DNA of 64,000 bases from Prosthecobacter sp. (GCF_020439865.1 NZ_JAGRPF010000220.1:1-64000), one strand, 5' to 3'. Shown: positions 21,985 to 54,531, counted from the stretch's first letter. A program made the numbers and translations. Notes: a model not told the origin generated them from the letters alone.

Positions 21985-23418
21985 TTATGAATTCGTCACC
22001 GTGATACGCTCTGCAATCACCTCGATCAACTGCTCCAAACTTCCCGCAGCGACAATGGCGATGCTTTCCTGGTAGATGCCGGTGTCGTAGAGCTCGCGGG
22101 GCGGGAGGTAGGAGGCGCCCCAGTCGGCGGCGATGCTTGCGACGACGATGATCTTGTCGGGGAAGCGGCGGCGGAGCTCGGTTTGGAGGAGGTTGTAGCT
22201 TTCGCCCTGCACACCGAGCCAGATGGCATCGCCGATGTGCCACAACACGACTTGCAGCGGGTAGGTGTCGCCGGGCGGAAGCTGATGGAGGCGATGCAGC
22301 AGACGGTTTTTGCGTTCGGCGAGGGCGCGCAGGTCGGCGGCGCGTGTTTCATCGCCAGCGGAGCGGGCGGTGGCTTCGTCGGCTTGGAATTGATCGAGTT
22401 CGGCCTGGGTTTGCTCGATCGTCGGCTGGCCGGGACGATAGTGCAGCGGCTCGTGCCAGCGTTGGAGTTTCCATCCGGCTTTGGAGGTCGTGTCGATGGG
22501 TTGATGCTTCCACGAGCCAAGTGTCGCGCCGGAAACAACGGGACCAGCATAGACAAAGTTCGTTCCGGCGGCGGCAAGAGCGGTGAGGGCTGAAAGCGCG
22601 GCGTAACCGAGTTCGCGGCCATTGCGATCCGCCACGGCGGTGTCACCGACGAAGCCTTCACGCGGGCCGAGTTCGCCGCTGGCTCCTTGCAGGAACAAAC
22701 ACGGTGCACCAGTGTCGCGTTCGACGACTTCGCGCATGGCGCCGATGTAGTCGGGGCTGATAAGCGTGTTCTCCCACGCGAGTGTGGTGGGATGGCAGGC
22801 GTAATTCACGATGCTGGCGAGCATCTGGCCCGCATTATCGGTGACACGCGCGACGATGACGGTGTCGTCGGCAGGCACGCCGGGATTGTGACCGCAGACG
22901 AACTGCTTTCCGTCCCAGAAATCGCGATGCGTGGCCAGCGAGCACTTTGCTTTGCCATAAACGATGCCCGCGGGTTGCAGCGAGGCCAGACACTGCTTCA
23001 CGAGCGCCCCGGCTTTCTCACCAAGTGATTGCAAGTAAGGCGGAATGAGATCACCGCCGGGCAGATTCGCCCGATCGATGCCCATGAGGCCCGCGCCGTG
23101 TGTGTGCGAGAAGGCGACGAGGATTTCTTCTCTGGCAACGCCGCCGATCTCCGCAGCCTGCGCGACGAGATTCGCATGCTCGGTGGCTCCCATCACGCAA
23201 TGATCGAGCGCTAGCACGATCTGCTGCTCACTTCCTTCCATCGGTGCAAAGATGGCCACGGTCGCTCGCAGCGGACGATGCACACCGGTGGCTCGGTCAT
23301 GCTTTGCCGCGCCCCACATCCGATGGTAGATGTTCGCAGGCGGTGTGATGTCGCACCACGCGAGTGCGAAACGGCAGCGGCTCTGCGGCGTGGGGTCTTC
23401 GGTGTGGGAAGGCGTCAT
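21985..23418 (-). CDS. Ceramidase-like protein without signal peptide
   Basis: 477 residues related to the N-terminal domain of neutral/alkaline non-lysosomal ceramidases. Supporting motifs are LAWCDITPPAN at the start, VAFSHTHGAGLMG (zinc ligand region, like the SATHTHSGP of ceramidases), NYACHPTTLAWENTLISPD and FLQGASGELGPR. No signal peptide is present, unlike the secreted relative at 49219-50589, so it may act in the cytoplasm. True ceramidase activity is not established for these bacterial short forms, which often sit near glycan-degradation genes. Divergent from the propeller glycosidase-like gene, 160 bp away. Confidence 0.8.
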   Translation of the reverse strand: MTPSHTEDPTPQSRCRFALAWCDITPPANIYHRMWGAAKHDRATGVHRPLRATVAIFAPMEGSEQQIVLALDHCVMGATEHANLVAQAAEIGGVAREEILVAFSHTHGAGLMGIDRANLPGGDLIPPYLQSLGEKAGALVKQCLASLQPAGIVYGKAKCSLATHRDFWDGKQFVCGHNPGVPADDTVIVARVTDNAGQMLASIVNYACHPTTLAWENTLISPDYIGAMREVVERDTGAPCLFLQGASGELGPREGFVGDTAVADRNGRELGYAALSALTALAAAGTNFVYAGPVVSGATLGSWKHQPIDTTSKAGWKLQRWHEPLHYRPGQPTIEQTQAELDQFQADEATARSAGDETRAADLRALAERKNRLLHRLHQLPPGDTYPLQVVLWHIGDAIWLGVQGESYNLLQTELRRRFPDKIIVVASIAADWGASYLPPRELYDTGIYQESIAIVAAGSLEQLIEVIAERITVTNS

Positions 23419-33411: not shown

Positions 33412-34887
33412 TCATTCTTGAGCGGCGGAGCGAGCATTGAGTGCTCGCCTCTGCATCAGGTCACTCCGCTTCCAGGCGAGCATGGTCACGATGACGATCA
33501 AGAGTGTCGTTCCGCTCAGAGCAGCAAGAAGCCCACCTCTGTCTGCTGCGGCGGTTGTCGCAGAGTCGGTCTGCGACTTCAGTCCCGACCAGGTGACCAG
33601 GATCGCGACCATTCCGGTAACCCCCGCAGCGTTTGCCATCAGCAGGAAATACTTTCTTGGCTGGCGGAAGCAAGCTGCGGATCCGAGGCCGCATGCCAGG
33701 CTTGCCGTCAGGACAATGAGCGCAAGGTCCACCCAATCGCGCATGAAAATGGCAAGAGCGGCCAGAGGAGCGGCCACCCCAAAGGTTCCGGCCGCAAATC
33801 GGGCGACTACGCCTTGCCGGCTCAAGAAGTCGGCACCATCGCCGGTCACCGGTTGATCCTCCACCCAGGTCTCCTCCTCGATGCGAATCCTTTTCACGTG
33901 CCGGCTCACGAAAGACAGGACTGCGATGAAGGGGAAGAGCAGGATTATCATCAGCACGGCGGGCCTGTAGGGGCTTTCGGCCATGAACTGCTCCAAACCG
34001 ATCCATTTCGGAGCAAAGAGCGCGATGCAGTAGAGTGAAAGCGCTCCCAATCCGCCCAACAAGACCTGAATGTAGAGTCGTCTCTCGCGGGGAGACCGTG
34101 TGGCGTCGAATCCGACTTTGGCGCACCAGCCAGCCACCATCAGTTGAATCGCCGGGAGGGCTCCCATTCCTTTGAAGACAGATGTCGATGTCTTGGCCAC
34201 GGTTCCCGCCGTTCCAGCGGCCGCTGCCGACTGGGGAGCAGCGAGGGGCAGTGCCATGAGAACTCCGGCCGTGAAGGTTCCGGCGGGTTTGGATTTCGTC
34301 AGAGCCGACTCCACCAGATGCGTGACTTCCTGCCGCAGCATTTCCCGCCCGCGGGACAGGCGTTGCTTCACGGTATCCGGCGTCAAATCCAGGGCTTCGG
34401 CAACCCGGCGGATCGATTGATCTTCGCGATAGTAGAGCACCAGCGGTTCCCGGTAGGTGTCCGGGATATTTTCGAGGGACTGCCACACGAGCGCCTCGTC
34501 TTCGGCACGGATTGCTTCCTCAGCCGGGGAAAGTTCGCCTCCCGCTGTCTCCGCAACCAGCTCAAGCGAAGCCGCCGTGGCGACCGGATTGCGACTCTCC
34601 TTTCGGATCGACTGGTGAATCAGATTCCGCGCGATGCCACACAGCCAGGCTTTGAACTTGTTCAGATCCTGCAGGCTTTTCAACTGCACCCAGGCGGTGA
34701 CAAAAGTCTCCTGGGCGAGATCCTCGCTGCGCGAATGGTTTCCAAACGCACTGTAGGCCATGGAGCAGATCAGGTTTTGATACCGCCGCACGACCTCTTC
34801 GAAAGCAGCCCGGTCACCTTTCATACAAAGGTTCAAGATCTGGATTTCACCGGAGAGGGCCATGTTGGTTGGAAGGTTGGCAATCAT
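33412..34887 (-). CDS. ECF sigma factor fused to a multi-pass membrane domain
   Basis: 491 residues. Region sigma2 is clear around residues 22-90 (FEEVVRRYQNLICSMAYS, SEDLAQETFVTAW, FKAWLCGIARN), and region sigma4 around 135-195 (IPDTYREPLVLYYREDQS, TPDTVKQRLSRGREMLRQ). After residue 205 come about six hydrophobic segments (for example LYIQVLLGGLGALSLYCIAL and AVLMIILLFPFIAVLSF). Typical ECF factors have about 190 residues, so the C-terminal 290 residues are an added membrane module, which could act as a built-in anti-sigma or sensor. A GAGG ribosome site precedes the start. A TGTCACC element at 34926-34920 may be an autoregulatory promoter. Confidence 0.87.
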   Translation of the reverse strand: MIANLPTNMALSGEIQILNLCMKGDRAAFEEVVRRYQNLICSMAYSAFGNHSRSEDLAQETFVTAWVQLKSLQDLNKFKAWLCGIARNLIHQSIRKESRNPVATAASLELVAETAGGELSPAEEAIRAEDEALVWQSLENIPDTYREPLVLYYREDQSIRRVAEALDLTPDTVKQRLSRGREMLRQEVTHLVESALTKSKPAGTFTAGVLMALPLAAPQSAAAAGTAGTVAKTSTSVFKGMGALPAIQLMVAGWCAKVGFDATRSPRERRLYIQVLLGGLGALSLYCIALFAPKWIGLEQFMAESPYRPAVLMIILLFPFIAVLSFVSRHVKRIRIEEETWVEDQPVTGDGADFLSRQGVVARFAAGTFGVAAPLAALAIFMRDWVDLALIVLTASLACGLGSAACFRQPRKYFLLMANAAGVTGMVAILVTWSGLKSQTDSATTAAADRGGLLAALSGTTLLIVIVTMLAWKRSDLMQRRALNARSAAQE

Positions 34888-39921: not shown

Positions 39922-41835
39922 CTACGAACCCTTCACAAAGCGCAGCGAGAACACGTCTGCGTTTTCCATTCGCAGGCGAAGTAGCACGGGTTTGCCGGCG
40001 AGCGCGGAAACGTCGGAGCCCTTCTTCCACGTGGCGATGTGGGACAGTTCGTTGCCGAAGAGCGTTTCGGATTCGTAAAGGCTGAAGCCCGGCAGCGCCT
40101 TGCCATCCATGTCGCAGAGCTCAAAGCGAATCCAACCGGTCGCGTCGGTGCTGTGATTGATTTCAAGTCGGTCGCCGCTGAAGACGAGCGGACGCGTGAT
40201 CATTTCGCCGGGAGCACCCTCGGAATGCAGCGAGACGAAACCGTCGGTACGGATCACGCCACGGCGCAGCCGCATGCCGGGATGGCGGTAGTGCTCGGTC
40301 CAGTACACAGACAACTCACCGGGCGCGGTTTCGATGACATTCCATGCGGGGTAGTTGTTGCGGTCCGTCCACACTTCGGGCTCGGTGCTCGGGCGGATGA
40401 AGGCCTGCGACCAGCGGTCGAAGTGCAGGCCGTCACGGCTGCTCATGAGCACCGCGTCGCTCACACCGGGGTCTTTGCGATCTTTGATCTTGGTGCGGCC
40501 CGGCACGAAACGCGCGGGCAGTCCGAGGTAGAGATGCGGCGCACGCGGATAGGCGAAGATGCCGTTCGTGTAGAGGTGTTCTTTGCGTGGGTCGCCGTAT
40601 TCGAGGAACACGGGCTCCGACCACGTGCGGAAGTCCTTGCTGGTGCAGGTCATGATGTCGCGCACGCCATCGCGGCCTTTGCGATGAAAGTCGACGTAGC
40701 ACTGCCGCTGCGAATCCCAGAACGCGAGATTCTGTGAATCAAACGCGCCATTGGTGATCGCGGCATGATCGAGCAGTTCGCGCCAGTGAACGCCGTCCGG
40801 CGAGGCAAACACGCCCAGCCCGCGACCGTGATGCGAATAGCCCATAGCCTTGAAGCGCTCGTCCTTCGGCGCGGCGGGATTGGGATCGAGGAAAGGCGTG
40901 AAGTTATGCGCGGCGACACCTTTCCAGATGATGTTGTTGTCCTTCGAGCCTTCGAACTCGAACAAGCCGGCGTTCACACGCGTGAAGTGAACGCCGTCGC
41001 GGCTTTCGGCGAGACAGCAGACCTGCCCTTCGCTTCCTGGTCCTGCCTGACCGCGGTAATACATCAGCACACGCTCCCCGTCCTGCAGCATGGCGAAGTA
41101 GGCTGAGGTCTCGCCTTCCCACGGTTGATCGAGCTTCAGCGCGATCTCGCGCGGTTCCGGATGAAGCAGACGGCGCTCGATGTTGCCGCTTTGACCATCG
41201 AGCAGGAAGTCATCGACAAACAGCTCGCGACGCGTGCCGATTTCATACGCGTCCTTCTTTCCCGGCGTTGCACGCTGCAGACCTGCGGTGCCGGGCTCGG
41301 TGCCGCCTTGCACGGTGAGCTCCGCGTCATCGGCGTCAAAGGTGCCCACATCGCCGGAGTAAGCGTAAAACGACACCGTCACCTCCCAGGCATCAGCAGG
41401 CGCGGTCTCCTTCACCTCCACGCGCCGCCAGTCGCCGGAGCCGTGCTCAAGCCGCGCGAAGCGATGTGCCACGCGCTCGCCGTAGAGGTCGTAGAAATTC
41501 ACATACACACCCGGCTTGCACTTGTCCGTGGTGCGGAACCATCCCGCCGCCGTGTAAACACCGCCTGGCCTTGCAGGAACGCGGCGGCATTCGAGGAACT
41601 GCCCGGCCTTCGGATCTTCGTCGCGGAACCGCGCATACGCCGCGCCCGTGTGGCCGCCATCGGTGCGACGCTCCACGGGAATGCCCGAACGCGTCGTCCA
41701 GTCATCGGCGATCACGCCGACCGCGTCCGCGTTTTCAAAGGAGGGATTGAGGGCGAGGTTGTCGCTGTCTTTGGCCGCGACCGCCGAAACGGCGGCGATG
41801 ACGAGCGAGGCAATGAGAGACGGTTTCGCGATCAT
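39922..41835 (-). CDS. Secreted glycosidase-like propeller with N-terminal sandwich
   Basis: 637 residues from the ATG at 41835 (MIAKPSLIASLVIAAVSA, signal peptide). Residues 25-185 form a carbohydrate-binding-like beta-sandwich (NLALNPSFENADAVGV, typical of CBM/laminin-like modules). The rest parallels the protein at 23579-25102: IGTRRELFVDDFLLDGQSG, CLAESRDGVHFTRVNAGL and DSQNLAFWDSQRQCYVDFHR. Thus a paralog pair differs by an extra glycan-binding domain. The family is not functionally assigned. Convergent with the DUF1552 gene. Confidence 0.8.
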   Translation of the reverse strand: MIAKPSLIASLVIAAVSAVAAKDSDNLALNPSFENADAVGVIADDWTTRSGIPVERRTDGGHTGAAYARFRDEDPKAGQFLECRRVPARPGGVYTAAGWFRTTDKCKPGVYVNFYDLYGERVAHRFARLEHGSGDWRRVEVKETAPADAWEVTVSFYAYSGDVGTFDADDAELTVQGGTEPGTAGLQRATPGKKDAYEIGTRRELFVDDFLLDGQSGNIERRLLHPEPREIALKLDQPWEGETSAYFAMLQDGERVLMYYRGQAGPGSEGQVCCLAESRDGVHFTRVNAGLFEFEGSKDNNIIWKGVAAHNFTPFLDPNPAAPKDERFKAMGYSHHGRGLGVFASPDGVHWRELLDHAAITNGAFDSQNLAFWDSQRQCYVDFHRKGRDGVRDIMTCTSKDFRTWSEPVFLEYGDPRKEHLYTNGIFAYPRAPHLYLGLPARFVPGRTKIKDRKDPGVSDAVLMSSRDGLHFDRWSQAFIRPSTEPEVWTDRNNYPAWNVIETAPGELSVYWTEHYRHPGMRLRRGVIRTDGFVSLHSEGAPGEMITRPLVFSGDRLEINHSTDATGWIRFELCDMDGKALPGFSLYESETLFGNELSHIATWKKGSDVSALAGKPVLLRLRMENADVFSLRFVKGS

Positions 41836-41987
41836 GATCCCGAAAGATCGCTCCACCACGAAGGAGAATTGCATCAGCGACTCGCAAAAGAGGACCCATT
41901 TCGCACATAGGAAGCCAATTGTCGCAGTGAAGGCGAGGGTGGTTCAGGGTATGAGTCAGGTGGCATGGCTGGCCGTGCCTGAAAGGA

Positions 41988-43058
41988 ATGTCGCTGACAT
42001 TCGATCCAACCGCTTCCTCAATCATGAACTCAGCCTTCGAACATATGTCTTCGGAGTCATCATCGGCGACGTGCTGCTGGAAGAGAGCTTGGAAACGAGG
42101 TGTGGCCTGCTTGCTCGCCGGCTTCTTCGTTTGCATCGCTTCAGGCGTTGGGGCGCAGACTGAAGCGCCGAGCAAATCCGCTTCGCTGCTGGCCGCCGTG
42201 GATGAGTTTGTGCAGCTCATGCGGGGAGATCCGGAACTGGCGGTCGATCTCATGATGTCCGCCGAAGCCTCCATCCGCTTCGAAGCTGGAGGTGCGATGG
42301 TGCCGGTGGCGCTCCGTTATTTCAGCCACGGCATCATTCCGTTCACGCAACCGCTGGATGGCGACGTCGCGCTGATTGGCTTCTATCATCCGTGGTCGGA
42401 TGTGATCCTTCTCTCGGAGTGGCGTCTCTCAGATCCGCAGCGGTGGATGATTGTGGACTGCGAGCTGGTGCCCGCCGATTTCATCCGGGAGGGTGGTGAA
42501 CCGCCCTATGACTTGTTGCCGCGGTGGCGCCGACCGGGCTTGTCGAAGCTGCCTCCCGAAGCCGTGATCAAAGCGACCGACGAGGCGGCTGCGTCTTTCG
42601 ATGCAGTGTTCCGAGACGCCCGGCCCGGAGTGTGGCGTGATGAGATTCATGCCCTCCACACGCCGGAAATGCTCGCTGTGGGCAGCGCGCTTGCCGTTCG
42701 GCGGCTGCGAGACGTCATCTCCACGCTCACGCTCCTCAAGCAAAGAGGCCGGCCCACGCATCTTGGGCGAAGCCTGCAGGAGCTCCTCACGCAGGCCCTC
42801 GACTCGGGGCTGGAAACGATGGATTCGAAGACAGGCATCTCCTCCGGGGTGAAAGCCCTTCCGCGGAAGACCTGGGAACATGCCCAGCTGCTAGCCGTGG
42901 CGCCCCTGGCAGATGGAGCATTTGTTTTTCTGACGGCCCCTGGCACGCGCTCATGTTTCATCAGCGGTTGTTTTCAGGACGGCAAGGAAGGCGCGCGTCT
43001 GCTCCGGATGGATCTGCTGTCCCTCGAAGACCTTCCCACCCCACAAACTGCCAAATGA
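41988..43058 (+). CDS. Secreted protein of unknown function, first of a three-gene cluster
   Basis: Up to 356 residues. The start is uncertain: ATGs at 41988, 42024 and 42045 are possible; the last gives the most typical signal peptide (KRAWKRGVACLLAGFFVC, cleavage near GVGA-Q). The mature protein has a mixed alpha/beta pattern (AAVDEFVQLMRGDPELAVDL, VALIGFYHPWSDVILLSEW) with no recognised domain. Its stop overlaps the start of the next gene by the four bases ATGA, suggesting translational coupling. Confidence 0.68.
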   Translation: MSLTFDPTASSIMNSAFEHMSSESSSATCCWKRAWKRGVACLLAGFFVCIASGVGAQTEAPSKSASLLAAVDEFVQLMRGDPELAVDLMMSAEASIRFEAGGAMVPVALRYFSHGIIPFTQPLDGDVALIGFYHPWSDVILLSEWRLSDPQRWMIVDCELVPADFIREGGEPPYDLLPRWRRPGLSKLPPEAVIKATDEAAASFDAVFRDARPGVWRDEIHALHTPEMLAVGSALAVRRLRDVISTLTLLKQRGRPTHLGRSLQELLTQALDSGLETMDSKTGISSGVKALPRKTWEHAQLLAVAPLADGAFVFLTAPGTRSCFISGCFQDGKEGARLLRMDLLSLEDLPTPQTAK

Positions 43059-44581
43059 AGACCCGACCTTCGATCTGTCTGTCTGCGGGCTGGATGCTCG
43101 TCCTTTTCATGGCATCCGCGACTCCCAGCGCTGCGGAGCCTGGCCTTCTCGACCGCTACTGGGACTGGTGCGACCGCCAAAACGACGATGACGATGTTGA
43201 GGGCGTGGACGATGCCATCCAAATCTTCGACAACCACTTACGCAAGACGGATCTCGACGAGCTCACGCGAGTGCGGAGCCGTTTCAACAGCGTGCAGAAG
43301 GCCATGGACGAGCGTCTGGTCACCGCCTTGGGCCATGAGTCACGACTGAAGGCAGAGCTCCACGCTGAGTACGTGGTACAAAAAGCTGCTAATCCTGGGC
43401 GCAGTGTCGAACTCACCCTCCAGCGCGCAAAAGAGAGCACCAACTACTCTCAAAGACTGGCTTTGCACCGCGCGGATTCGCAGTCGCTTTCCGCCATGCG
43501 CGCGGAATCAGCCACGAACGCGTCACGTCTTGAACAGGTGGGCAATAAGATCGAACAAGCCGAGGAAGGCCTCGCTGCTGGGAAATCCAAATCGCCATTC
43601 AAAGTCAAAGGCTGGCTGCAAGGATTGGGGAAATTTCTGGAAGCCGCCGACCTCGTCGGTACCGCAGTCACGTGGTTTGCCGATGTTCACGGAATTTATG
43701 AGGGTGACACCAGTGTTCAGGATCTGGCCGAGCGAGTGGGCGGGGACTTGGCCAAGCGGGCGGTCCTTTCCAAAGCCGCCGCCGGAGCTGGAGCCATGGG
43801 TTCGGCCACGGGGGTGCTGGCTCCTGTGGCCATCCCGGTCTTGGTGATCGCTGCAAGTGAGAAGGTCTCCACAGATTTCGACAACTCCGTGGGGGCGCTC
43901 ATGGATCGCCGCCGTCAGGAACGTGCGGATGAGCGAGCTCGTCAGCTCTATGCCATGGAGCCCGAGGAACTTGCCCGACGGAGGGCGGAAAACCGGGCAC
44001 GATCGCAGCGTGAGAACGCGGAAGCGGCCGCCTTGGCGCAACGCCAGCCAAAAGGAGTCAGCATCGACCAGCTGCGTTCGGATGTGCAGGCCTGCTATGC
44101 CAGGTGGGATGAAGAAAAGAAGAAGGAGCAGCAGGCCCAGGCGGCCGTTCCTCCACCCGCGCCCGACATTGGCGCCGCTTTGCATTCGGTGGGAACGATG
44201 ATCACGAGCACGTTGAGCAATTCCACCCTGAACTCGATGCTGAGTCCGGATCTGCAGGCCGCGCTTGCCTCGGTCAAGAGCCTGCTGCAACCACCCGCTG
44301 CGCCGCCTGTCCCGACCACGCCCCCACCGGCCGTCATCGCGACGTTGCAGCAACAGGCTGCCGCTGAAATCTCGACCGTGGTAGTCCAGCAACTGCAAGC
44401 CTCCACCAAGGCTGAAACAACCGCCAAATCACAACCCGTTCCCAGCAGGAAAAGCGCCGCGCCCATTCAGACGACACAATCCAAAGAGTCCTCTTCGGAG
44501 GACTTGGATGAGATCATACGCCAGATCCGGATCAAGGCCATTCAGGCGGCGAGTGACGCTGTGACCAAGACTCCGCGTTGA
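43055..44581 (+). CDS. Secreted coiled-coil protein of unknown function
   Basis: 508 residues from the ATG that overlaps the upstream stop codon. Signal peptide residues 1-27 (ATPSAA-E). Residues 30-190 are highly charged and heptad-like, predicted coiled coil. A glycine/alanine-rich hydrophobic stretch near 235-266 (AAAGAGAMGSATGVLAPVAI) resembles membrane-inserting segments of pore-forming or phage-like proteins. After it come Arg/Glu-rich helices and a Pro-rich tail. No family recognised. Partner of the flanking genes at 41988 and 44606. Confidence 0.68.
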   Translation: MKTRPSICLSAGWMLVLFMASATPSAAEPGLLDRYWDWCDRQNDDDDVEGVDDAIQIFDNHLRKTDLDELTRVRSRFNSVQKAMDERLVTALGHESRLKAELHAEYVVQKAANPGRSVELTLQRAKESTNYSQRLALHRADSQSLSAMRAESATNASRLEQVGNKIEQAEEGLAAGKSKSPFKVKGWLQGLGKFLEAADLVGTAVTWFADVHGIYEGDTSVQDLAERVGGDLAKRAVLSKAAAGAGAMGSATGVLAPVAIPVLVIAASEKVSTDFDNSVGALMDRRRQERADERARQLYAMEPEELARRRAENRARSQRENAEAAALAQRQPKGVSIDQLRSDVQACYARWDEEKKKEQQAQAAVPPPAPDIGAALHSVGTMITSTLSNSTLNSMLSPDLQAALASVKSLLQPPAAPPVPTTPPPAVIATLQQQAAAEISTVVVQQLQASTKAETTAKSQPVPSRKSAAPIQTTQSKESSSEDLDEIIRQIRIKAIQAASDAVTKTPR

Positions 44582-44605
44582 ACCAACCCTTGCTCAGCCA
44601 TCCTC

Positions 44606-45880
44606 ATGAAAGCCATTCACATCTTGCTCATCCTCGTGTCGTTTGCCTGCCCATGCGGTGAACAGGTCATGGGGCAGTTGGTTGAACCGCCGGATGTATC
44701 CACTGCACGTTTTCGAAACCTGAGCCGCCAGTTGCATGCACAGGGGCTGCCGGAGATCGAAAAGGCGGAATGGGAAAAGTCGATCCTCGTCGTTCGCCTC
44801 CTCACGCCGCCTGACAATGACACGTCTTTGCAGGAGCCCCGGCAATTGCTGCCTGCACTTTTGCTCGGCTATGGACTGGTGCGGGATGCCGGCCTTTCTG
44901 CCAGCGCCCTTCGCGTGGCATGCCCGCTGCCGGACGGCGATCGATTGGAGGCCGAGGCCACCGTCGATCGTCTGGCAGACTTCGTCGGCAAGCGTTCGTC
45001 GCTCGACGACTTTGTCAGTCAGGCGAAACTGACCCGGGTGGCCTGGCGGCCGCCGGACGGCACGAAGGATGGGATAACGACTGCTTTCTGGGAACACGGG
45101 AAGAAGCTGTTCGAGAAGAAGCAAATCACGCAGGCCCTGACTGCATTCCGCGAGGTGGAGAAACGAAATCCGGGTTTTCCAAAACTCGCTCAAGCCCTCG
45201 CTCTTGTCCTCTTCCATGCCAGCCAGTTTTCAGAGGCCGTTCCATGGCTGGAAGCTGCCTTCAAAGAGAATCCTGCCGATGCCTCATTGCCGAAAATTGG
45301 TGTGGCGTTGAGCAACGAGCTGTTTCAGGCTGGTCAGTTGGAACAGGCGATCCGTGTCACCAATCTTTTCGACGTCGATCCGACGGACATCAATCTGAAG
45401 ACCATGCGCCTCATTCGAGCCATGGCGGAGGTCAAAGGAGGAAATGCCGCCAAGGGTGAGCAGACAGCTGAAGAGGCGACCCGACTGATGCCGGAATCTT
45501 GGGAGCCTTGGTTTTGGCTGGCCAATGCTTGTGCTCAGCAAAACAAATGGCCGCGTGCCATCGAGTTTGCCACCAAGGCTTTGGAGCGAAACCCTGCGCA
45601 TACCGATTCCCACTTTCTCCTCGGTCGTGCCCAGGTGGCAACCGAGCAATACGGGCCGGCCGTGCAGTCGCTTGGCAAGGCCTTGGAGCTCATGCAAAAG
45701 GAGGGAATCACCCCGCCAGAAAACTTGTTTGTGCAGTTGTCCTACGCCCACGCTCAACTGAATGACGCGGCGCAGGTCGTGAAGGCCGCCGAGGCCGGCC
45801 TCGCATGCTATCCCCAAAGCGCGAGTCTTCAGACCAATTACAAAGCGGGTTACAAAGCCATGCTGGCCAGGAAGAAGTAG
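44606..45880 (+). CDS. Secreted TPR-repeat protein
   Basis: 424 residues with a hydrophobic leader (ILLILVSFACPCG; a Cys near the cleavage site would allow a lipoprotein, but no clean lipobox is seen). Residues 150-420 contain about six TPR-like helical pairs, for example FWEHGKKLFEKKQITQALTA, WEPWFWLANACAQQNKWP and THTDSHFLLGRAQVATEQYG-like units. TPR arrays mediate protein contacts; no enzyme domain is present. It starts 24 bp after the coiled-coil gene, in the same direction, and completes the cluster. Confidence 0.78.
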   Translation: MKAIHILLILVSFACPCGEQVMGQLVEPPDVSTARFRNLSRQLHAQGLPEIEKAEWEKSILVVRLLTPPDNDTSLQEPRQLLPALLLGYGLVRDAGLSASALRVACPLPDGDRLEAEATVDRLADFVGKRSSLDDFVSQAKLTRVAWRPPDGTKDGITTAFWEHGKKLFEKKQITQALTAFREVEKRNPGFPKLAQALALVLFHASQFSEAVPWLEAAFKENPADASLPKIGVALSNELFQAGQLEQAIRVTNLFDVDPTDINLKTMRLIRAMAEVKGGNAAKGEQTAEEATRLMPESWEPWFWLANACAQQNKWPRAIEFATKALERNPAHTDSHFLLGRAQVATEQYGPAVQSLGKALELMQKEGITPPENLFVQLSYAHAQLNDAAQVVKAAEAGLACYPQSASLQTNYKAGYKAMLARKK

Positions 45881-48493: not shown

Positions 48494-49222
48494 TCAGGGC
48501 GTGGTGAGCTCCTTGATGAAGATGTTCCGAAACTCGACGGCGTCCTTGTGATTCTGCAACGTGATCGGTCCCTCGGCGGGGATGTCCTTCACGCGCGCGC
48601 CTTGGATGACTTGAATGCCGTTGAGCAAGACATCGACGCGATCACCACGCAGGGTGATGATGAAGCGATTCCATTCGCCAGGACCTTTGTCGGCGCGGGT
48701 GGAGGGCATGGTTTTGAGGCGTTCGTCTTTCGTTGCCGTCATGTCCTTGAACTTGGTGCCGACCTCGCCGCTGCCGCAGGGCTGGCACCAGATGTTCACC
48801 TGCGCGAGTCGTGCGCCGCGCAGATACACGCCGCTGTCGCCCCAGGTGAGATTGTCCTTCATGATCGTCTTGCCTTCGGCGTCGGTGTGAAAGGTTCCGT
48901 CGTCCTGCAGCCATTGATGCGGCTTCACATGCGGCTCGCCGGTGAGACGCCAGTCGATCATCAGCGTGAAGTCTTTGAAGTGCTGCTTCGTGGAGAGGTT
49001 GTAGTCCTGGCCCTTCACACGCGGCGGTTCGTCGGTGCGCAGTCGAATGACGCCGTCGGCGATGTCCCAGACACCATCGAGGTGCGCGGGATGATTCCAC
49101 TGCGCCCAGGTCTTGCCATCAAAGAGGGCGATGAAGCCATCAGGTGCTGGCTCGTTTCCGCATGCGAATCCGGCATGCAGCAGGAGCGTCCCAACGGCGA
49201 TACACAAGATGTTACGTTTCAT
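48494..49222 (-). CDS. Secreted DUF1080 protein (3-keto-disaccharide hydrolase type)
   Basis: 242 residues with a signal peptide (GFACG-N). DUF1080 (PF06439) features are FIALFDGKTWAQWNH, the concanavalin-like strands FKDFTLMIDWRLTG, GDSGVYLRGA and WNRFIITLRGDRVDVLLNG. Family members have been linked to hydrolysis of 3-keto-glycosides. It is the last gene of a five-gene operon; its start codon overlaps the upstream stop by ATGA. Confidence 0.88.
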   Translation of the reverse strand: MKRNILCIAVGTLLLHAGFACGNEPAPDGFIALFDGKTWAQWNHPAHLDGVWDIADGVIRLRTDEPPRVKGQDYNLSTKQHFKDFTLMIDWRLTGEPHVKPHQWLQDDGTFHTDAEGKTIMKDNLTWGDSGVYLRGARLAQVNIWCQPCGSGEVGTKFKDMTATKDERLKTMPSTRADKGPGEWNRFIITLRGDRVDVLLNGIQVIQGARVKDIPAEGPITLQNHKDAVEFRNIFIKELTTP

Positions 49223-50589
49223 TTCTTGGTTAGTTCCTTGAGCAGTTTCAGCACGGCCTTCACCAGCAACTCGCCGGAACCTTGCGCACAGCGGGCGCTG
49301 ACGACTTCGTAATTGCCCTGCGGATAGGCGCGGCTGTCGGGAATGTAGCCGATGCTGCCGTTGGCGAGTTCAGCGATCATCGTGTGCTTGAAGGGTGACT
49401 GTTTTTTCAGCGCGAGTCCGAGTTCGACGAAGATCTCGCCCGGCAGCGCCACGATGGCGGCGTCATCACTGAAGGCGATGGCCTGCACCTCGACGCTCAG
49501 CGGTTCGTTTTGTTTCGAGATGGTTTCAAGGATGCACACGGCCTCGGCCATGGTCACCGTGCCGAGGTTCTTGGTGACCATGCGCGTCGCGATATCCTTG
49601 GCCTTGGCGATTTCGGCTTCGGAATAGCTACGGCGGTTCAGCATGACGCGCGTGGAGGCAATGCGCGGAGCGAAGGTCTTGAGCGGCTTCAAGTTCGGCC
49701 ATGCTGCGTCAGTGGCATCGGCGAGCAGGGCGCCGATTTGCAGATGATTGCGGCGCGTGCCGGTGAAGTAGTCGTTGGGATTGATGTTGCCGCAGCAGCC
49801 GTTGGCGAAGACGGAGACCATGTCCGGCCCGTGGCGTTCGTTGATCAGTTTGGTGAACACACCTGGGAAGTCCGCGGAGACTTTAGTGCCCGCACCGACG
49901 GAGGTCGGATGCATGGCGAAGTTCAGCAGGCTGGCGACTGGTTTTGACGCTGCTGCATTCGAGTTGAAGACGAGCACGCCGATCTCCGGATCGACGGGGC
50001 CTGCGGGCCGCATGGTGGCGGGATCGAAGGTCTTCGGCTGCCAGAGCGCCTGCGTGGTGCCTTCCTTCAGCACGCGACGATTGAAGCTGATGCCTTTGCC
50101 ATCGCCGATGGCGAAGGCCGGTGTCACAGGCGCGAGTTTCGCTTTGGCTTCGTTTACCGACTTCGCGATCAAGTCGGGCAACGACTGCATGTAGGCCACA
50201 CCCGGCGGTGAATCGGCCTGCGTGAGCTTGTCCATGAGGTTCAGTCGCGGCAAGGTCGGACCGGTGTGCGTGTGCGTCGCCGAGATCATGACGTGATCGC
50301 CTTCGATACCGCACTGCTTCTGAACCGCCGCACGCGCGGCATCGACGAGAGCCTGCGTGGTGTAGGCGACATCCAGCACCACCAGCGCCGCATGCACACC
50401 GTCCTGCTCCATGATGATCGTCTTGGCATAAAGCGGATCCAACATGCCCGCGACGGCGCGCGCATGATAGTAACCGGCGAGCGGCGTGCCGTTCTTCGGC
50501 GTGATCTCGACTTGGGACGCGGCAGCGCGGAAATCACCGGCCTGCAACGATGTGGCGAGAACGAGGAGCGTTAAGTAGACGAGTTTCAT
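49219..50589 (-). CDS. Secreted ceramidase-like protein
   Basis: 456 residues from the ATG at 50589, with a signal peptide (TSLQA-G). Neutral-ceramidase-type motifs are RAAASQVEITPKNGTPLAGY, MISATHTHTGP (zinc ligands), NFAMHPTSVGAGTKVSADFP and FANGCCGNINP. C-terminal immunoglobulin-like domain of full ceramidases is absent. Substrate could be the amide of a lipid or of an amino sugar. ATGA overlaps connect it to both neighbours in the operon. A cytoplasmic relative lies at 21985-23418. Confidence 0.86.
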   Translation of the reverse strand: MKLVYLTLLVLATSLQAGDFRAAASQVEITPKNGTPLAGYYHARAVAGMLDPLYAKTIIMEQDGVHAALVVLDVAYTTQALVDAARAAVQKQCGIEGDHVMISATHTHTGPTLPRLNLMDKLTQADSPPGVAYMQSLPDLIAKSVNEAKAKLAPVTPAFAIGDGKGISFNRRVLKEGTTQALWQPKTFDPATMRPAGPVDPEIGVLVFNSNAAASKPVASLLNFAMHPTSVGAGTKVSADFPGVFTKLINERHGPDMVSVFANGCCGNINPNDYFTGTRRNHLQIGALLADATDAAWPNLKPLKTFAPRIASTRVMLNRRSYSEAEIAKAKDIATRMVTKNLGTVTMAEAVCILETISKQNEPLSVEVQAIAFSDDAAIVALPGEIFVELGLALKKQSPFKHTMIAELANGSIGYIPDSRAYPQGNYEVVSARCAQGSGELLVKAVLKLLKELTKK

Positions 50590-51737
50590 GCGGGTTGGAA
50601 GGGCTTGGAGAGTGTGAGCGTGCGTTCGGCTTTGGCGTAGAAGCCGGCGGGCGCGAACTGATCGGTGTGCAGGTAGCACTGCACGCGGAGTTCGCGTGAT
50701 TGCGGCGTGAAACTGAGCAGACGCGACATTGGCAGCGTGGTCTTCGCAGCGTGGTAGCGGCTCAGCGCGGCACAGTTGATGAAATGCACTCCCCACTTCG
50801 TCTCGATGTGCGAGCGTCCACCGAGGGTGTCGTCCGGATTCGTGTGCGTGTGGCCGCCGAGCCAGAGCGCGACCGCGCCGGGATGTTCGGCGAGGTATTT
50901 CTCGAACGCGCCCGCATCCGGCGTTTCGTCGAGCCAGTAGAGATAGCTCGCGCCCTTCGGTCCGCCTTTGGGGAAGTAGCCGTGGTAGTGCGAGACCCAG
51001 TTGTCTCCTTTCTTTTTGAATCCTTCCCACGGCCCCGAAGCGACCGTCGTCTCACGCAGCATGTGATGATGCGCGCAGACGATGATCGAGTCGCGGTTCG
51101 TCTCCACCTGCTGCTTCCACCATTCGAAGGTGTCGCTCGTCACCGCGCCCGCCGGATAACCGCCCACCTCCGCGCGACCACGCGGCGGACCGCCGTCGTT
51201 GCGATCGGACATGATGAGGAAGAGCAGGTTGCCGACGCGGAAGGAATAGCGCTCCCAGGTGCCTGAAACCGGATAGCGCCGCTTCTTCGGATCGACTCCC
51301 GAAGTCGCCGTGTTTTCTCCAGTGGGATCGACCCACTTCTTGAACCACCACTGCGTCTCTTCGTCGGGACCGGAGGCATCGTGGTTGCCCGCGAGATCAT
51401 ACACATCCTCGCGGCGATGCTTTTTCAGTTCGCCGTATTGCTTCACCACCTCTCGCCCTTCTTTGTCATCCGGCGCACCCTGACCACCGGCGAGATCGCC
51501 GACGTGAATCGCAATGTCCCAGTCAAAAGAGGGTGCCCCCAGCTTCTCGTCGCCAAATTCCGACTGGCGAATCGCCTTCGCCAAAGATTCGCGCCCTTTC
51601 TTGATATCGGTGCCGACATGCGAATCACCGCAGGCCCAGAGATGAAACGGCTTCCGTGACTCGGCAGCGATCGACGGAGTCAAACCACCCGCGGCCAGCG
51701 CGGCGGAGGTGCTGAGGAATTCGCGGCGTGTTTTCAT
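50586..51737 (-). CDS. Tat-exported calcineurin-like metallophosphoesterase
   Basis: 383 residues. Tat signal KTRREFLSTSAALAAGG. The five metallophosphoesterase motifs are present: CGDSHVG, HVGDLAGG, LAGNHDASG, CAHHHML and GGHTHTNP, giving a two-metal centre. Such enzymes cleave phosphomono- or diesters. The third gene of the ATGA-coupled operon, exported like all other members, so it probably dephosphorylates the same extracellular substrate as the sulfatase. Confidence 0.9.
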   Translation of the reverse strand: MKTRREFLSTSAALAAGGLTPSIAAESRKPFHLWACGDSHVGTDIKKGRESLAKAIRQSEFGDEKLGAPSFDWDIAIHVGDLAGGQGAPDDKEGREVVKQYGELKKHRREDVYDLAGNHDASGPDEETQWWFKKWVDPTGENTATSGVDPKKRRYPVSGTWERYSFRVGNLLFLIMSDRNDGGPPRGRAEVGGYPAGAVTSDTFEWWKQQVETNRDSIIVCAHHHMLRETTVASGPWEGFKKKGDNWVSHYHGYFPKGGPKGASYLYWLDETPDAGAFEKYLAEHPGAVALWLGGHTHTNPDDTLGGRSHIETKWGVHFINCAALSRYHAAKTTLPMSRLLSFTPQSRELRVQCYLHTDQFAPAGFYAKAERTLTLSKPFQPA

Positions 51738-54456: not shown

Positions 54457-54531
54457 TGGAGGCGAGGGCGGGAATTGAACCCGCGCATACCGGTTTTGCA
54501 GACCAGTGCATTACCACTTTGCTACCTCGCC
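54457..54531 (-). tRNA. tRNA-Cys (anticodon GCA), CCA encoded
   Basis: On the minus strand the acceptor stem GGCGAGG pairs with CCTCGCC, followed by discriminator T and an encoded CCA (54459-54457). The anticodon stem CTGGT/ACCGG encloses the loop CTGCAAA, with anticodon GCA. The T loop is GGTTCAATTCC. U73 is the identity base expected for tRNA-Cys. Confidence 0.96.

What the first reader, a model, noticed from the sequence alone, without database searches (positions are those of the whole stretch)
41988..45880. Cluster of three unrecognised secreted proteins (unknown, coiled coil, TPR)
The first two genes overlap by ATGA and the third follows by 24 bp. The middle protein combines a long coiled coil, a Gly/Ala-rich hydrophobic segment and a Pro-rich tail, a layout seen in envelope or pore-forming machines; the third is a TPR scaffold. 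None matches a family I know, and none is an enzyme of the surrounding glycan system.
Basis: partly seen in the sequence, partly recalled or inferred. Interest (0 to 1): 0.65.

Follow-up and report, generated by a model that had tools for sequence, protein, structure and literature searches.

The report
Unnamed exported protein-pair operon with TPR
Three exported bacterial proteins with no named family turn out to be a conserved unit: the first two travel together across several phyla, and in some bacteria their relatives sit inside the gene cluster for Tad pili, so they probably build a piece of cell-surface machinery, although what it does is unknown.

Summary
The trio is real. P0001, P0002 and P0003 form one operon, all with export-signal-like N-termini. 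P0001 and P0002 match no curated family; P0003 is a TPR protein with an unnamed N-terminal domain. P0001 and P0002 are absent from 47 congeners, yet a P0001 profile finds relatives in Nitrospirota, Acidobacteriota, Pseudomonadota, Thermodesulfobacteriota, Kiritimatiellota and other Verrucomicrobiota. In all 13 free-standing loci the next gene (overlapping, or within 23 bp) encodes an exported protein with a Gly/Ala-rich hydrophobic core, which P0002 shares weakly but above controls. One other Verrucomicrobiota genome has the full trio in the same order; a Nitrospirota locus has the pair plus TPR genes. AlphaFold models P0001 as two tandem NTF2-like domains, the layout of beta-class VirB8 proteins, but the genome has no VirB4. 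A sister clade of the pair lies in Tad pilus minor-pilin loci; the window's genome has no Tad-domain gene. Best reading: an unnamed, horizontally mobile envelope module, with P0001 a periplasmic scaffold for P0002, whose Gly/Ala hairpin inserts in a membrane, and P0003 a dock. The pairing is well supported; the mechanism is inferred.

The parts
41988..43058 (+). P0001 (356 aa): exported protein, defining member of the conserved family; start could also be 42024 or 42045
   Evidence: ORF; relatives in 12 genome-contig loci, A3 profile; no curated family
42162..42527 (+). P0001 first NTF2-like domain (residues 59-180) with the family signature FYHPWSD (residues 132-138; P135, W136, D138, W145, R167, W180, F204 invariant in 13 rows)
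   Evidence: AlphaFold2 model, VIA-align Z 6.9 to NTF2-like folds, alignment A3
42744..43031 (+). P0001 second NTF2-like/cystatin-like domain (residues 253-348)
   Evidence: Model; Z 6.3 to a designed cystatin fold and to TraM of pIP501
43055..44581 (+). P0002 (508 aa): exported partner, all-helical, directly after P0001 with ATGA overlap
   Evidence: ORF; model; partner position conserved in the relatives read
43199..43576 (+). P0002 two long helices (residues 49-112, 119-174), probable coiled-coil hairpin
   Evidence: Model, pLDDT about 67-83; weak coiled-coil type Pfam hit PF07926, E 6e-4, below cut-off
43712..43954 (+). P0002 Gly/Ala-rich hydrophobic segment (residues 220-300), part of the core shared with partner proteins of other loci
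   Evidence: Leave-one-out profile 15.1 bits, above all non-partner background proteins and 299 of 300 local shuffles; hydropathy
44147..44374 (+). P0002 Pro-rich stretch in the tail (approximate limits)
   Evidence: Read from the translation
44606..45880 (+). P0003 (424 aa): exported TPR protein
   Evidence: Pfam TPR_2, E 1e-17; homologue in the same place of the G054 trio, E 4e-38
44693..45061 (+). P0003 N-terminal domain (about residues 30-152), unnamed, shared with the G054 homologue
   Evidence: E 5e-14 over residues 30-172 in G054 only, of 387 order genomes; alignment

Best explanation
The three genes encode one exported cell-envelope module. P0001 sits in the periplasm or on the membrane and works as a double NTF2-like scaffold that binds P0002. 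P0002 inserts its Gly/Ala-rich hydrophobic hairpin into a membrane and carries a coiled-coil stalk and a lineage-specific tail. P0003 docks the pair to other envelope parts through its TPRs. The pair is a horizontally mobile building block: a sister clade has been fixed inside Tad pilus minor-pilin (tip) loci, while the window's copy is free-standing. Shown by sequence or model: the operon, export-like N-termini, conserved pairing across phyla, modelled tandem NTF2-like fold, Tad loci of the sister clade. Inferred: physical binding, membrane insertion, docking, and any surface function.
For: Pairing: in 13 of 13 free-standing loci, window included, the gene after the P0001 homologue (from 4 bp overlap to 23 bp gap) encodes an exported protein, and all 13 have a Gly/Ala-rich hydrophobic segment. 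Partner homology: with P0002 left out, the core profile still gives it 15.1 bits, above every non-partner background protein (next 6.1) and 299 of 300 shuffles. Full trio in G054; pair plus two TPR genes and a CsgG-type lipoprotein in Nitrospirota L039. Scaffold: P0001 modelled as two NTF2-like domains. Anchoring: relatives carry FHA plus a hydrophobic, transmembrane-like helix (L046, L047) or look like lipoproteins (L042, L045, L048; read by eye). Tad: the seven tree members of the sister clade (100/99 support) come from loci with Tad, TadE or prepilin-peptidase domains or pilin-like ORFs.
Against: No binding or membrane test exists. The P0002 model has pTM 0.36 and no fold match. Direct sequence similarity of P0002 to other partners is weak, and the core profile used limits chosen by eye. 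Four Tad-clade partners (L033, L034, L066, L068) lack a clear Gly/Ala hydrophobic segment. TPR partners are missing in several free-standing loci. The window's genome has no Tad-domain gene, so the Tad context cannot be carried over directly.
Confidence: 0.42

Rival explanations
1. The pair is a secreted membrane-active effector (pore former or similar) with its carrier or neutraliser: P0002 acts on membranes of other cells, P0001 keeps its hydrophobic hairpin soluble or protects the producer.
For: Partner tails differ between loci (lipase-like region in L034, Cys-rich tails, other tails). Patchy, horizontal distribution. NTF2-like folds occur in immunity proteins such as Tai3. Tad tips of Myxococcus serve killing of prey (PMC12075869).
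Against: P0001, not the tail, is the conserved part, which is unlike an immunity protein that follows its toxin. P0002 has no toxin domain in Pfam and no PADLOC hit. No fold match to pore formers (but the model is weak).
Confidence: 0.2
2. P0001 is a VirB8-like assembly factor of an unrecognised conjugation or type IV secretion system.
For: Same layout as beta-class VirB8 proteins OrfG and TcpC: membrane anchor, then two NTF2-like domains (PMC11753425); TcpC 3ub1 Z 6.2, TraM 4ec6 Z 6.3, IcmL-like 5cnl Z 5.5.
Against: No VirB4-type ATPase (PF03135) in the window's genome or in nine other carrier genomes, while the two Novosphingobium carriers and the Caulobacter control ring. No T4SS gene recognised beside any copy read. 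Z under 8 is common for this fold (note).
Confidence: 0.08
3. The module is simply a Tad pilus accessory, inherited with Tad and now orphaned in this genome.
For: Sister clade inside Tad loci.
Against: The window's P0001 groups with free-standing copies (98/97), and most of their genomes lack the Tad domain.
Confidence: 0.12
4. The trio serves the surrounding polysaccharide-degradation genes, for example as a surface glycan-binding or delivery complex.
For: Neighbours are sulfatase, esterase, PSD/HXXSHH-type and SGL genes; an F5/8 domain is fused to P0001 of L044 and a CBM/glycosidase gene lies near the pair in L043.
Against: No glycan gene is conserved beside the module; congeners that have the family of the 39922-41874 gene lack the pair.
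Confidence: 0.08

Closest known systems
Beta-class VirB8-like proteins (OrfG of ICESt3, TcpC of pCW3, Orf13 of Tn916)
   Different: No T4SS genes recognised nearby and no VirB4 in the genome; no sequence match; partner is a Gly/Ala-core protein; own signature FYHPWSD
Tad pilus minor-pilin Tip complexes (KilLMN / TadE-TadF-TadG)
   Same: Sister-clade copies lie beside TadG-like and TadE/F-like genes; tips carry variable domains (PMC12075869)
   Different: P0001 and P0002 are not pilins by their modelled folds; the window's genome has no PF13400 gene
ClyA-type alpha-pore-forming toxins (one to three components)
   Same: Helical protein with long helices and a hydrophobic segment; two- or three-gene systems exist
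   Different: No Pfam or fold match; here one component is NTF2-like and one is TPR
CsgG-type lipoprotein clusters
   Same: In L039 and L043 a CsgG-FN3 lipoprotein and a further shared exported protein accompany the pair
   Different: None of these lies beside the window's trio

Membership tests
[quoted passage not shown]
   Model of P0001, Z 6.9 and 6.3 for the two halves; moderate Z, predicted model only
VirB8-like (beta-class) T4SS subunit | Works within T4SS machinery, which needs a VirB4-type ATPase in the genome | tested here: not met
   PF03135 absent from G000, Caulobacter control positive
Tad pilus system | Tad/TadE-type minor pilins in the genome | tested here: not met
   PF13400 finds none in G000; positive in G614, G469, G656 and Caulobacter
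ClyA/Hbl-type alpha-PFT | Family sequence profile | tested here: not met
   No such family in hmmscan of P0002 and relatives
ClyA/Hbl-type alpha-PFT | Helical-bundle fold with hydrophobic tongue | tested here: inconclusive
   No fold match, but model pTM 0.36
ClyA/Hbl-type alpha-PFT | Forms pores in membranes | not testable with these tools
   Needs purified protein
Family of P0001-P0002 pairs described here | P0001 homologue followed directly by an exported Gly/Ala-core partner | tested here: met
   13 of 13 free-standing loci including the window; P0002 core 15.1 bits leave-one-out
TPR repeat protein | TPR profile above curated cut-off | tested here: met
   P0003, TPR_2 62.9 bits against cut-off 27
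Known anti-phage defence system | PADLOC model match | tested here: not met
   No match for the trio at E 0.01

The most novel reading that the evidence does not exclude
A previously undescribed, horizontally mobile surface module in which a double NTF2-like protein loads a membrane-inserting glycine-rich helical protein with swappable tails, used free-standing in many phyla and captured by Tad pili as a tip-associated membrane-acting device.
Probability: 0.13. Interest if true: 0.82.

Novelty: new variant of a known kind. Interest (0 to 1): 0.52.

Why it matters
The pair is unnamed in Pfam and NCBIfam although it recurs in at least six phyla. It links free-standing envelope genes to Tad pilus tip loci, whose customisation is an open question. 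It gives two testable predictions (P0001 binds P0002; the Gly/Ala core enters membranes) and a signature motif for annotation.

Tried and rejected
P0002 alone finds no relative: genus, order, genome contigs, phages. P0001 finds none in plasmids or viral contigs. Weak P0001 hits in L037 and L038 look like an RNase-type and an oxidoreductase-type protein and were dropped. The PDB sequence hit of P0001 to cytochrome P450 (E 0.03) was taken as chance. Direct hhalign of P0002 to the partner alignment A4 (E 0.09, cores out of register) and a first partner profile (score like shuffles) gave nothing; only the core-restricted profile separated it. An internal repeat of the P0001 halves is not significant by sequence (E 0.04). 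Foldseek gave no significant match for P0001 or P0002; the P0002 list held only helical noise. Glycan-system membership, T4SS, Tad and defence were considered and set aside as above.

Full report
What is there. Three plus-strand genes, 41988-43058, 43055-44581 and 44606-45880, form an operon with an ATGA overlap and a 24-bp gap. The genes on either side run the other way, so the trio is self-contained. G+C is ordinary for the window; third-position G+C is slightly lower than in neighbours (0.68-0.70 against 0.71-0.78).

Known families. P0001 and P0002 hit no Pfam family above its cut-off, no NCBIfam family and no PADLOC family; P0003 is a TPR protein. The surroundings are a sulfatase/esterase/PSD-type gene neighbourhood. 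No second copy of any of the three was found in the genome at the thresholds used (a 51-residue P0002 match at E 0.01 was not followed).

Distribution. P0001 and P0002 have no counterpart in 47 congeners (one 68-residue P0001 match at E 0.003 was not followed), and a P0001 profile finds only one other carrier among 299 genomes of the order, G054. P0001 finds distant relatives in the phylum, and P0003's N-terminal part finds G054. In G054 the same three genes occur in the same order, with P0001-like and P0003-like proteins at E 2e-15 and 4e-38 (small database) and a Gly-rich exported protein between them. An alignment-based scan of 84,980 species gave 12 loci in Nitrospirota, Acidobacteriota, Pseudomonadota, Thermodesulfobacteriota, Kiritimatiellota and Verrucomicrobiota.

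The pair. In all 13 free-standing loci (the window and the 12, among them the G054, G691 and G435 loci found before) the P0001 homologue is followed by an exported protein, with spacing from -4 to +23 bp. All 13 have a Gly/Ala-rich hydrophobic stretch; of secreted-like or membrane background proteins 19 of 114 do at the same threshold. A core profile built without P0002 gives it 15.1 bits, above all 274 non-partner proteins (the one higher entry is a fragment of the G435 partner) and all but one of 300 local-composition shuffles; L050, L042 and L062 behave alike, while L065 and L039 do not separate. So P0002's membership is moderately supported, not proven, and the core limits were chosen by eye.

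Architecture of relatives. P0001 homologues carry an FHA domain plus a hydrophobic helix in L046 and L047, an F5/8-type domain in L044, and lipobox-like N-termini in L042, L045 and L048. The signature is [FY][YF][HQ]PW[SN]D, with P135, W136, D138, W145, R167, W180 and F204 invariant in 13 rows. Partner tails differ between loci.

Structure. AlphaFold2 with 13 sequences gives P0001 at pLDDT 73 and pTM 0.70: helices then four strands, twice. The best VIA-align matches are NTF2-like folds, Z 6.9 for residues 59-164 and 6.3 for 253-349, including the conjugation proteins TraM and TcpC, an IcmL-like protein and chains of the Tae3-Tai3 complex. Foldseek alone was not significant, and Z under 8 is common. 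Beta-class VirB8 proteins have this layout and form trimers (PMC11753425). P0002 is modelled as all-helical, with two long helices and low confidence in the hydrophobic part; pTM 0.36 and no fold match.

The Tad link. Searches also found a second clade of P0001 relatives (100/99 support), from G614, G469 (two copies), G653, G668, G423 and G429, with a near-identical copy in G408. In these loci the pair lies beside genes with Tad, TadE or type IV prepilin-peptidase domains, or pilin-like ORFs. For L062 (second copy of G469) the neighbours seen were a pilin-like ORF and an FHA gene. Tad minor pilins form tip complexes with variable domains, used for killing in Myxococcus (PMC12075869). The window's own genome has no PF13400 gene, and its P0001 groups with the free-standing clade (98/97).

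Mechanism. The simplest reading is an exported scaffold (P0001) for a membrane-inserting helical partner (P0002), with a TPR dock (P0003). A VirB8 role is disfavoured because the genome has no VirB4-type ATPase. An effector role stays open because the partner tails vary and the pair is mobile, but the conserved member is P0001 rather than a tail-specific immunity protein, and no toxin domain was found in P0002.

Limits. Many loci come from metagenome-assembled genomes. Gene calls in relatives were made with a simple longest-ORF script. Signal peptides, lipoboxes and transmembrane helices were judged by eye and hydropathy. The genome samples were drawn evenly and the first look is loose, so absence claims hold only at that sensitivity.

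Noticed in passing
window 39922-41874 (-): Gene without a Pfam hit at E 1e-5 belongs to a family present in 39 of 47 genomes of the genus, five matches in this genome; its first 200 or so residues are mostly outside the matches.
   Followed up: no
window 33412-34887 (-): ECF-type sigma factor (regions 2 and 4) with a C-terminal extension of about 300 residues without a Pfam hit.
   Followed up: no
window 49219-51030 (-) and 21985-23418 (-): Two proteins related to neutral/alkaline ceramidase, the second below the cut-off.
   Followed up: no
window 54460-54531 (-): A tRNA gene, the only Rfam hit of the window.
   Followed up: no
L071 2342-9880 (-): In G691, on the same contig as the pair, a 2512-aa RHS-repeat protein with a C-terminal Tle1-like phospholipase domain.
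   Followed up: partly
L042 13740-14672 (+): The gene after the G054 trio carries an NADase-translocation type F5/8 domain (PF25302, E 1e-24).
   Followed up: no
L039 7122-7973 and L043 11571-12500: Shared unnamed exported protein (IDEKxLGT motif, read by eye) beside CsgG-FN3 lipoproteins and the pair in two phyla.
   Followed up: partly
L034 7224-9038 (+): The Tad-locus partner protein has an N-terminal lipase/thioesterase-like region, below Pfam cut-offs.
   Followed up: no
L042 12253-13737 (+): The P0003 homologue of G054 has an N-terminal zinc ribbon and a hydrophobic helix before the TPR part.
   Followed up: no
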